From: a virus
DNA: 23,991 nucleotides
IMG/VR virus record: IMGVR_UViG_3300022602_000424
Coordinates: 1 to 23,991 of that record
Reading direction: 5' to 3' (one strand)
Made by a program: the position numbers and the translations under genes. Positions 21,422 to 23,991 of this stretch are shown here, one piece after another. Positions within the stretch are counted from its first letter, which is position 1, and each line of letters starts with the position of its first letter. The notes beneath the pieces are model-generated. The model had not been told where the DNA came from, ran no database searches, and worked only from the letters and a program-made list of their open reading frames with translations.

Positions 21422-21934
21422 TTAGTCGTATCTCCCCAACTTTGCAAGACTGGTTAACTGTCTTGCAATTGAAGGATAATTTTGATCATCATATTTGATG
21501 CCAATTCCGCCAGAACTTTGCCAACTGTTGACATTTCTTCCATAATCATCAACGAGGATGCATGGGTTGCCGCCTAGTGTAGCAAACTCTGCTTTGTTGT
21601 GTGTAAGTTCAATATGCTTAGGTGGCATATCACTGAAATGCATACCAACCCAAGCTAGCTTGCCTGGTTCGCTGCGTGGATCGCCTGTTAATGGCGTTGA
21701 GCAAATATAATAACTGCCAAATTCTTTAATAACATGCCTGACCAATTCACGAGCATGTGGAAGAAGTGGAAGATTAGTCCAAAATGTAGGATGTTCTCGT
21801 ACCAGTTGCAGTTTTGCTTCTGGATTATCAATATCTTTATAGTGGTCTTTGCCATCAAGCTTTGCCCACTCACCGAAAAAGTCAGCGAGAACTCCATCTA
21901 AATCAAGGTAAACTCTGAACTTCTGATTAGCCAT
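21422..21934 (-). CDS. 5'(3')-deoxyribonucleotidase of the HAD superfamily
   Basis: A 170-residue protein of the NT5C-type nucleotidase family. It dephosphorylates (deoxy)nucleoside monophosphates and may tune nucleotide pools. Motif I is DLDGVLADF (11-19, nucleophile D11 and D13), motif II is ICST (77-80), a Lys follows in PGKLAW (K92), and motif IV is LVDDYGRN (127-134). All catalytic positions are present. The start is set at MANQKFRVYL because an upstream in-frame ATG would lie within the promoter. A sigma70-type promoter lies 33 bases upstream, divergent from the plus-strand island. Confidence 0.87.
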   Translation of the reverse strand: MANQKFRVYLDLDGVLADFFGEWAKLDGKDHYKDIDNPEAKLQLVREHPTFWTNLPLLPHARELVRHVIKEFGSYYICSTPLTGDPRSEPGKLAWVGMHFSDMPPKHIELTHNKAEFATLGGNPCILVDDYGRNVNSWQSSGGIGIKYDDQNYPSIARQLTSLAKLGRYD

Positions 21935-22008: not shown

Positions 22009-22036
22009 TTGACAGATGGCGCTTTTGTGCTAGTAT
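22009..22036 (+). promoter_or_regulatory. Promoter for the plus-strand two-gene island
   Basis: TTGACA, 16 bp and TAGTAT on the plus strand. Its -35 box is 14 bp from that of the divergent nucleotidase promoter. The predicted start falls in AGGTATAAATA. Confidence 0.8.
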
Positions 22037-22040
22037 AAGG

Positions 22041-22048
22041 TATAAATA
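22041..22048 (+). promoter_or_regulatory. T4-type late promoter motif (TATAAATA)
   Basis: A perfect TATAAATA lies 16 bases before the ATG of the 22064-22249 gene and just after the early-type promoter. Together they could keep the island expressed throughout infection. A single 8-base match in AT-rich DNA may be chance. Confidence 0.5.
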
Positions 22049-22063
22049 TTACAGGAGTTTCCA

Positions 22064-22249
22064 ATGCGTATCAAGGAAGTTATTCCTACAAATGAAGATT
22101 TTTCTGGTCAATTTGTGACCACTGCTGATCCTGTTATTTCTCAGGAAGATACTGCTCGCGTCCTTGCTGTCAAAGAATCCGATTTTAGCGAACCTATGAG
22201 CGGCGATGAACTCGTTGAACACATGAAATCTGTTCTTGGAATGCAATAA
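22064..22249 (+). CDS. Small acidic protein, possible antitoxin
   Basis: A 61-residue acidic protein (MRIKEVIPTNEDFSGQF, then an ESDFSEPMSGDELVEHMKSVLG C-terminal helix). A good ACAGGAG Shine-Dalgarno element. Its stop overlaps the next start (TAATG). Size, charge, order and coupling fit an antitoxin that binds the following protein, but no antitoxin family motif or clear DNA-binding domain is visible. It is one of only two complete plus-strand genes in the window. Confidence 0.65.
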   Translation: MRIKEVIPTNEDFSGQFVTTADPVISQEDTARVLAVKESDFSEPMSGDELVEHMKSVLGMQ

Positions 22250-22608
22250 TGGCAACAGTTTTTAGAACATGTGGGCTATTTGATGATACTCTAAAATCAC
22301 ATGGCAGTGCCGTTCTAAAAGCATTTATTGATTTTAAGAAAACCAAAGAAATCAATGCCATGACTCCGTTTGGCAGTAAAGATCGTCCATTTGCTGGCGA
22401 TGGTCCATTTGGCATGATGAAGCCACGCCTTATACATGCTGGCATGACTAAAGACATTAGTTTATTTTATTATATCTCAGGTCAAAATCCACAAGTTATT
22501 AGTTTACTTGGTTTCTTTACCCATGATGAAAGCGGTATTGGTCAACCTTCTAAGCCTGCTATTCAAAAAGCATTGGTTAAAAAGTTTGGCAATCAAGAAA
22601 TGAAGTAA
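22249..22608 (+). CDS. Possible RelE/ParE-type toxin-like protein
   Basis: A 119-residue basic protein. Pattern: VFRTCGLFDDTL … FIDFKKTKEINAMTPFG, then PRLIHAGMTKDISLFYYISG, VISLLGFFTHDESGIGQP and a basic C-terminal helix. A similar 'H-A-x-L-T-x-D-I-S-x-x-Y … G-x-F-x-H-x-x-x-G-x-G-Q-P' arrangement occurs in small phage/bacterial proteins that I believe share the RelE-like toxin fold. RelE-type toxins cut mRNA on the ribosome. Catalytic residues cannot be assigned with certainty. The stop codon abuts the stop of the minus-strand gene (TAATTA), with no terminator between. Call tentative. Confidence 0.5.
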   Translation: MATVFRTCGLFDDTLKSHGSAVLKAFIDFKKTKEINAMTPFGSKDRPFAGDGPFGMMKPRLIHAGMTKDISLFYYISGQNPQVISLLGFFTHDESGIGQPSKPAIQKALVKKFGNQEMK

Positions 22609-23991
22609 TTACGATAGCTGTCTTACTGTCCAACCAGTTCCCAACGAACTACTATAATTAATTGTAAAATAACTTGTCGCATTTTGATAGTTATTGAATG
22701 CTGCTGCATCCGTTAACTGCTCACCATCGCCACTATACAATGCATAATTACCTCTGCCACCAGGATTTGCAATTCTAGGTGTGTTATTAGTTACACTAAT
22801 ATTGGGATCATTTGCCCAATCTGGCGTAGGTTCAGCAGCAGGTTGATTTACAATAGGTTCGCCTGGTCCCATATAGAACAATTCTTGTTCATCAGTATTT
22901 GGCGCAATTGTATATAACGCAATACCACGCAATCCACCAATAGTTCCGCCCCAACGCATTACTGTGCTATATGCTCGTTGGAAATTATTAGCAAATTCTA
23001 TTGCCGCTTGTTGGGTAGACGCACCGAATCTATGAATTTCTCTACCATCATCGGTATATTTTATAACATATCGTACTGGGCGTTGATCGCCACTTGCGGT
23101 GCCTTGTGCAGTCTGTGTGGCTGTTGGTGGCAGTGATGGAGCACGATCTTCGCCTCTACTGGTAATGCGCATAACATCATCACGCAAGTATTGTAAGGAA
23201 GATTCATCTAATAGTTGAACATTAAAACGATCTGCTCGCAAGCCCTTTACGCCCCAATGTTTTTCAGCCGCAGGAGCAGCCATCTTTATTATTTCACTTT
23301 GATATGTTGAATACATTTCAACCTGTGGAATAAACACTATTGTTTTACTGTCCATCTCATTAGGATTTGTAGAATAGTATTGAACACGAACCATGCTATA
23401 ACCAGGATAGCGTAGACTTACATCAGCGAGTGGCATCTGACGGTCATGGGCAAACTTTACTGCTGCCTCAATCATGTCATATGGTGCAGTGCCGTTGATT
23501 TTTACTACTTGTTCGCCGTCTTCATTTTCCAAGAAACCATCAACTGGGCCACTGCCTATCGGTGCAATAGGCTTACGACGCTCTTGTGCACTGCGTAATT
23601 CTCTAACAAGTTGTTCTTTGTCAATAGCACCAGCAGTATATTTTGCAAATAGCTGCATCGTGTTATCTTTTTCACCAATGCCAGAACTAACAAACTTATA
23701 CAATTTCTTTTGATATTCTTGCTTTGAATCTTCACTGTCAGCGGCTGCTGCCATAACACGAACATAGCGCAACATAGTCTTGCGGATTTCTTCATATTGC
23801 TCAAAGTAATTACCACCAGCACTACGGAACTCAATATAGTTTGACTTGATGTTTACACTTACGTAACGGTCACCACGAGGAACCAATAGTTTATTGATTT
23901 CTTTTTTAGCAATATCTTCTAATCCACCACGCATCTTATCAAGGATTGCTGGTACATTCTTTTTGGCATTTCTACCACGCACTTCACGCTT
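22609..23991 (-). CDS. Large phage protein, 5' end outside the window; weakly amidoligase-like
   Basis: The frame is open to the right edge, giving at least 460 residues; an internal GTG at 23982 is not needed as start. Near the left end of the visible part is YVSVNIKSNYIEFRSAGG, then EEIRKTMLRYVRVMAAAAD and EYQKKLYKFV. The 'H/N-x-E-F-R-x-x-G-G … T-M-L-R-Y' run recalls the end of phage proteins annotated as putative amidoligases (COOH-NH2 ligases), whose catalytic part would lie outside the window. Middle and C-terminal parts contain linkers and two repeated-looking domains (RYVIKYTDDGREIHRFG, about 300-335; NYALYSGDGEQLTDAAAF, about 415-432). Function unconfirmed. Confidence 0.6.
   Translation of the reverse strand, partial: KREVRGRNAKKNVPAILDKMRGGLEDIAKKEINKLLVPRGDRYVSVNIKSNYIEFRSAGGNYFEQYEEIRKTMLRYVRVMAAAADSEDSKQEYQKKLYKFVSSGIGEKDNTMQLFAKYTAGAIDKEQLVRELRSAQERRKPIAPIGSGPVDGFLENEDGEQVVKINGTAPYDMIEAAVKFAHDRQMPLADVSLRYPGYSMVRVQYYSTNPNEMDSKTIVFIPQVEMYSTYQSEIIKMAAPAAEKHWGVKGLRADRFNVQLLDESSLQYLRDDVMRITSRGEDRAPSLPPTATQTAQGTASGDQRPVRYVIKYTDDGREIHRFGASTQQAAIEFANNFQRAYSTVMRWGGTIGGLRGIALYTIAPNTDEQELFYMGPGEPIVNQPAAEPTPDWANDPNISVTNNTPRIANPGGRGNYALYSGDGEQLTDAAAFNNYQNATSYFTINYSSSLGTGWTVRQLS

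What the first reader, a model, noticed from the sequence alone, without database searches (positions are those of the whole stretch)
22009..22608. Plus-strand two-gene island resembling a toxin-antitoxin pair
Amid minus-strand genes, a 61-residue acidic protein and a 119-residue basic RelE-like candidate are coupled by TAATG. They have their own consensus promoter and a perfect T4 late motif. The downstream stop abuts the converging gene's stop with no spacer. Such an island could be a mobile defence or superinfection-exclusion unit, or a phage-coded mRNA cutter.
Basis: partly seen in the sequence, partly recalled or inferred. Interest (0 to 1): 0.55.

Follow-up and report, generated by a model that had tools for sequence, protein, structure and literature searches.

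The report
Phage toxin-antitoxin-like gene pair
A fragment of a T4-like phage carries a small two-gene cassette whose second protein has the fold of bacterial mRNA-cutting toxins and whose first is its probable inhibitor; the pair recurs in related phages, is sometimes fused into one protein, and may ride inside the virus particle.

Summary
p1 (61 aa, pI 4.3) and p2 (119 aa, pI 9.6) overlap by TAATG and are real genes. I found the unit in 20 virus records including the window: 18 as adjacent genes, 2 as one-ORF fusions with different junctions. p2 matches no family above cut-off, but an AlphaFold2 model (pLDDT 79) is of the RelE superfamily, nearest YafQ and the H. pylori YafQ-like toxins (Z about 10). 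Positions equivalent to YafQ D67 and H87 are invariant; other YafQ active-site positions are not. Best reading: a new, diverged RelE/YafQ-type toxin-antitoxin pair under an early (sigma-70-like) and a T4-late-like promoter, in a variable slot (one relative has a clean empty site, others hold homing endonucleases). Toxicity and neutralisation are untested. Unexpected: p1 begins with a leader that I find on 43 of 389 protein families in these phages (1.2 expected) and that resembles the T4 capsid-targeting sequence; both fusions keep it. A bolder reading stays open: p1 carries the RelE-like protein into the phage head for injection. Against it, the window's p1 lacks the expected protease site, and leader genes are not enriched behind late motifs.

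The parts
22009..22036 (+). sigma-70-like promoter, TTGACA-16-TAGTAT
   Evidence: 10 of 12, TG before second hexamer; TTGACA box kept at >=10/12 in 15 of 20 records
22041..22048 (+). T4-late-like motif TATAAATA
   Evidence: TAAATA before p1 in 19 of 20 records
22053..22057 (+). ribosome-binding site AGGAG
   Evidence: read from sequence
22064..22249 (+). p1, 61 aa acidic protein, probable antitoxin/partner
   Evidence: homologue adjacent to p2 in all 18 two-gene records and at the N-terminus of both fusions
22064..22081 (+). N-terminal leader MRIKEV of p1, resembling a capsid-targeting leader
   Evidence: columns 1-6 of p1 73% pairwise identical, 7-22 only 32%
22247..22251 (+). TAATG stop/start overlap of p1 and p2
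   Evidence: TAATG in 13 of 18 two-gene records
22249..22608 (+). p2, 119 aa basic protein of RelE-superfamily fold
22435..22455 (+). HAGMTKD, residues 63-69 of p2 (H63, A64, D69 invariant; aligns with DAHVEPD of YafQ)
22510..22548 (+). GFFTHDESGIGQP motif, residues 88-100 of p2; H92 aligns with the catalytic His of YafQ-type toxins
22609..23982 (-). converging large gene (cluster C4, at least 457 aa, cut by window end); stop abuts p2 stop (TAATTA)
21422..21934 (-). diverging NT5C-type deoxynucleotidase gene, the other border of the slot

Best explanation
p1-p2 is a phage-borne toxin-antitoxin-like module of a new, diverged RelE/YafQ-type family. p2 is probably an RNase of the RelE superfamily that acts in the ribosomal A site; p1 is the acidic partner that binds and restrains it as the two are made from coupled cistrons. 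The cassette is read from a host-type (early) and a T4-type late promoter and is gained or lost as a unit in a variable slot. Its most likely role is control of translation or of host/competitor mRNA during infection. Shown: gene pair, conservation, fold, promoter motifs, linkage, empty site. Inferred: RNA cutting, binding and neutralisation by p1, timing, benefit to the phage.
For: Fold: AF2 model of p2 (pLDDT 79.2, pTM 0.75); Foldseek PDB top rows are DinJ-YafQ and other RelE/YoeB toxins, best E 4.7e-4, TMt 0.70; VIA Z 10.3, rmsd 2.0, 87 aligned to H. pylori toxin 4ltt, and Z 10.0, rmsd 2.1, 86 aligned to YafQ 4ml0; a second model from another family member gives Z 10.6, rmsd 1.7, 88 aligned to V. 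cholerae YafQ. Sequence: Pfam YafQ_toxin is the only family hit, in 4 of 16 members, best E 0.018, below cut-off; hhalign pairs HAGMTKD with DAHVEPD of E. coli YafQ, P 0.0082 against 0.18 for RelE. D69 and H92, equivalents of YafQ D67 and H87, are invariant in 16 of 16; these residues are needed for YafQ toxicity (PMC6529426, passages). Partner: p1 in all 18 two-gene records, fused to p2 in 2 others; opposite charges.
Against: No curated family is reached. YafQ H50, H63 and F91 equivalents are not kept in the window (R46, G65, G96), and R83 of YafQ falls on G88, so activity is uncertain. p1 shows no DNA-binding domain and no similarity to DinJ or RelB. Two single-chain fusions fit poorly with a toxin released by loss of its antitoxin. 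No toxicity data.
Confidence: 0.6

Rival explanations
1. Virion cargo: p1 is an adaptor whose N-terminus targets it, with p2 bound or fused, to the phage prohead; [quoted passage not shown]
For: p1 starts with M[KR][IV]xE[VI] in 18 of 18 two-gene records, and MKISEV or MRIFDV starts the two fusions. That leader pattern is on 43 of 389 families of these phages against 1.2 expected and in 36 of 42 hand-picked examples is followed by [ILVMF]xE at residues 7-12. T4 packs small basic proteins by a roughly 10-residue N-terminal leader that gp21 removes (PMC9026906, passages). The same slot in relatives holds a 54-aa basic protein starting MRAHEFITE. p1 columns 1-6 are 73% identical, 7-22 only 32%.
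Against: The window's p1 has no [ILVMF]xE ending within residues 6-18, and in the other nine p1 forms the site lies mostly at 13-17 instead of 7-12. Leader-bearing ORFs are not enriched behind TAAATA once p1 and NT5C are left out (16 of 157 against 57 of 648, Fisher P 0.64). That the leader is a capsid-targeting sequence is inference from resemblance. p2 itself has no leader.
Confidence: 0.2
2. Catalytically weak or dead RelE fold used as a decoy: p2 occupies host antitoxins or the ribosomal A site without cutting, blocking host toxin-antitoxin defence.
For: Loss of the YafQ H50/H63/F91 and R83 equivalents in the window; p1 has no visible DNA-binding part.
Against: Purifying selection with 19 invariant columns, among them H63, D69, Y74, H92 and D93, looks like an active site.
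Confidence: 0.12
3. Superinfection exclusion or inter-phage defence island.
For: Variable slot, own promoters, presence/absence among close relatives.
Against: No direct evidence; PADLOC gives no hit at E up to 10.
Confidence: 0.1

Closest known systems
DinJ-YafQ (E. coli) and HP0892/HP0894-type YafQ-like toxins
   Same: Fold of p2; order partner first, toxin second; aligned DAH-D and catalytic His region
   Different: Pfam YafQ_toxin cut-off not reached (15.8 against 30 bits at best); only part of the YafQ active site kept; C-terminal extension GxGQP...; p1 unlike DinJ
RelBE and YoeB-YefM
   Same: RelE-superfamily fold
   Different: No sequence similarity to RelE or RelB
T4 internal proteins and Alt (capsid-targeted, injected)
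   Same: Late-type promoter motif, small basic protein, capsid-targeting-like N-terminus on p1 and both fusions
   Different: Leader sits on the partner, not on p2; protease site not in the usual place; packaging not shown
Unnamed viral protein A0A8D4GM25 in BFVD
   Same: 41% identity, TM 0.84/0.86, E 1.6e-12 to the p2 model
   Different: No name or context available here

Membership tests
RelE/ParE superfamily (fold) | RelE-type alpha/beta fold | tested here: met
   (predicted models)
YafQ family (Pfam PF15738) | score above the curated cut-off | tested here: not met
   window p2 no hit; best member 15.8 against 30 bits; 4 of 16 members hit at all
YafQ family | active-site residues H50, D61, H63, D67, H87, F91 | tested here: not met
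   D67 and H87 equivalents kept in 16 of 16; H63 equivalent is G in the window group and H in the distant group; H50, D61, F91 equivalents replaced in the window (H87, F91 by offset from it)
Type II toxin-antitoxin system | adjacent or overlapping antitoxin and toxin genes | tested here: met
   18 of 20 records as two genes, 2 of 20 fused
Type II toxin-antitoxin system | toxin harmful alone, neutralised by partner | not testable with these tools
   needs expression tests
Type II toxin-antitoxin system | antitoxin with DNA-binding domain, autoregulation | tested here: inconclusive
   no family hit for p1; no match to DinJ or RelB; such domains are not universal
T4-type capsid-targeted internal protein | N-terminal capsid-targeting leader | tested here: inconclusive
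   leader pattern present, function inferred
T4-type capsid-targeted internal protein | prohead-protease site after the leader | tested here: not met
   no [ILVMF]xE ending within residues 6-18 of window p1; present at 8-17 in 9 of 9 other p1 forms listed
T4-type capsid-targeted internal protein | present in virions | not testable with these tools
   needs virion proteomics

The most novel reading that the evidence does not exclude
A virion-delivered RelE: the acidic partner p1 doubles as antitoxin and capsid-targeting adaptor, so that a T4-like phage packs a restrained mRNA-cutting toxin in its head and injects it into the next host, using a leader shared by dozens of unrelated proteins in these phages as a general loading tag.
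Probability: 0.2. Interest if true: 0.85.

Novelty: new variant of a known kind. Interest (0 to 1): 0.52.

Why it matters
It adds an unannotated branch of RelE-fold proteins that I found only in environmental virus records, with natural toxin-partner fusions that are hard to square with addiction and so ask what phage toxin-antitoxin pairs are for. If p1 is also a loading tag, virion proteomics of one cultured relative would test whether lytic phages inject RelE-type toxins, and the shared leader would give a sequence handle for predicting head cargo across environmental T4-like phages.

Tried and rejected
Family searches of window p1 and p2 in Pfam, PHROGs, NCBIfam and PADLOC at E up to 10: none. 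PDB sequence search with p2: none. Phage records by tblastn with p2 of the window, L047 and L135: none, except a weak 28% match (E 0.08) in Xanthomonas phage records, not pursued. Plasmids: only E above 1 or none. Two scans of 84,980 species genomes with p2 profiles: no relative; these need exact short peptides, so distant relatives are not excluded.

The p1 profile scored ETV6 SAM-domain chains at E 6.7e-5: rejected, because the score comes from repeated copies in fusion constructs, single stretches reach only 7 bits, and single-domain ETV6 chains score E about 0.1.

Chance overlap of two open frames: rejected by homologues and dN/dS. Intrinsic terminator after p2: none found. The second AF2 job was meant to show p1 docked on p2; p1 came out low-confidence (pLDDT 36-56) as three helices and the tool gives no contacts, so nothing is concluded about the interface. 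A first family clustering chained 472 ORFs into one family and was replaced by stricter criteria. The link 'leader implies late promoter' was tested and failed (P 0.64).

Full report
The window is a complete 23,991-base virus record, a linear fragment. Its DNA polymerase is of the T4 superfamily; the nearest described relatives are mostly large phages at 44-48% identity. A T4-type gp23 capsid gene occurs in 2 of 19 related records, one from each branch of the pair's family, and the window's polymerase is found at 76-97% identity in 9 of 19. All are fragments, so absences say little. The host and the habitat are unknown to me.

Observation. Every stated feature is present at the stated place. 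The single T4-late octamer is no more than chance in itself (1 found, 2.28 expected), but 6 of 8 TAAATA in the window lie 4-34 nt before an ORF start, and TAAATA precedes p1 in 19 of 20 records.

Spread. Searches in viral contigs gave 19 records besides the window; several are near-duplicates (L039/L035, L041/L042, L043/L044, L135/L136). Eighteen of the 20 carry p1 and p2 as neighbours: TAATG overlap in 13, abutting or ATGA overlap in 2 (L040, L131), and a stop plus three bases in the same frame in 3 (L047, L135, L136). Two carry one open frame with p1-like and p2-like parts, L046 and L134; they lost different pieces, so they look independent. No record with p2 lacked a p1 part. Relatives were sought only in viral contigs, species genomes, phages and plasmids; none turned up outside viral contigs apart from one unnamed viral protein in a structure library.

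Locus. In the window's group the pair lies between a large gene (C4) and an NT5C-type nucleotidase gene. Of 80 NT5C loci examined (the best 80 of 175), 10 hold p1-p2. Eighteen loci show both C4 and NT5C: 8 with the pair between, 10 without. In L072 the site is clean: the C4 stop, TTA, one A, then the NT5C promoter region, against about 0.6 kb with the pair in the window. Other occupants of the slot are homing endonucleases (L057, L058, L052; PHROG 314, E 4e-27 to 9e-11), a 54-aa basic protein and larger unknowns. In L026 and the distant group the surroundings differ. This supports gain and loss as a unit; how it moves is not known.

What p2 is. No family model is reached. The model from 11 sequences matches almost only RelE-superfamily toxins; a model from L135 agrees with higher confidence in the p2 part. 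The tool warns that Z under 8 may mean little; the top rows stand at 10 and cover 84-90 of about 90 residues. The alignment to E. coli YafQ pairs H63-A64-G65 with D61-A62-H63 and D69 with D67; the alignment of a distant member to HP0892 pairs the His of THDE with the His of the toxin's HSEL motif. YafQ needs H50, H63, D67, H87 and F91 (PMC6529426 and PMC7584586, passages). p2 keeps two of these five in all 16 members and a third in the distant group. I take activity as likely, not certain.

What p1 is. It is small, acidic, and made just before p2: the pattern of an antitoxin. It has a conserved six-residue start, a variable stretch and a conserved rest (73, 32 and 50% mean pairwise identity). 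The start matches a pattern that I find on 43 of 389 protein families of 92 contigs (shuffle mean 1.2, maximum 4), often followed by [ILVMF]xE (36 of 42 examples picked by hand). T4 loads internal proteins into its head through such a short N-terminal leader, removed by the protease gp21, and injects them (PMC9026906, passages; PMC5694885, passages). The resemblance is mine and untested; the listings of paper searches on this topic or on phage RelE pairs showed no title about this family or about such leaders outside T4 and the giant phages, which is weak evidence of novelty since few of those papers were opened.

Mechanism. Most likely p1 and p2 form a complex as they are made, p2 being a ribosome-dependent RNase held by p1, produced from early and late promoters to adjust host or phage mRNA use. 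The fusions show that p1 and p2 parts work, or are tolerated, in one chain, which is odd for an addiction pair; one solution is that p1 also places p2 somewhere, for instance in the head. The window's p1 lacks a canonical protease site, which could mean targeting without processing, or no targeting at all.

Verdict. A real, selected, new family of RelE/YafQ-fold pairs in T4-like phages; ordinary in kind as a toxin-antitoxin-like module, unusual in its promoters, fusions and leader.

Noticed in passing
92 T4-like contigs (window, L036-L048, L053-L127, L131, L134, L136): Shared N-terminal leader M[KR][ILV]x[ED][ILVM], usually followed by [IL]xE, on 43 of 389 unrelated protein families (1.2 expected), including nucleotidyltransferase-like proteins and NT5C; looks like a capsid-targeting sequence.
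   Followed up: partly
same 92 contigs: Distance from TAAATA to the start codon is bimodal: 51 of 179 at 4-5 nt, most others 14-28 nt; the close class would give nearly leaderless late mRNAs.
   Followed up: no
NT5C gene 21422-21934 and orthologues in L039, L040, L060, L072: NT5C has the MRIxEV-type leader in some relatives and not in the window, so the leader is gained or lost on a conserved enzyme.
   Followed up: partly
L057:3227-3901, L058:2598-3194, L052:3554-4327: Homing endonucleases inserted at different sides of the p1-p2 pair in the C4-NT5C slot.
   Followed up: partly
L049:4162-4326 and homologues: 54-aa basic protein starting MRAHEFITE, coupled to the C4 stop; a candidate T4-like internal protein.
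   Followed up: no
22609-23982 (C4) and L044: C4 is a family of very unequal length, up to 2286 aa in L044, function unknown.
   Followed up: no
L134:4576-7848: 1090-aa protein with an Amidoligase_2 hit (E 2.6e-7) and a leader-like start, directly before the p1-p2 fusion.
   Followed up: no
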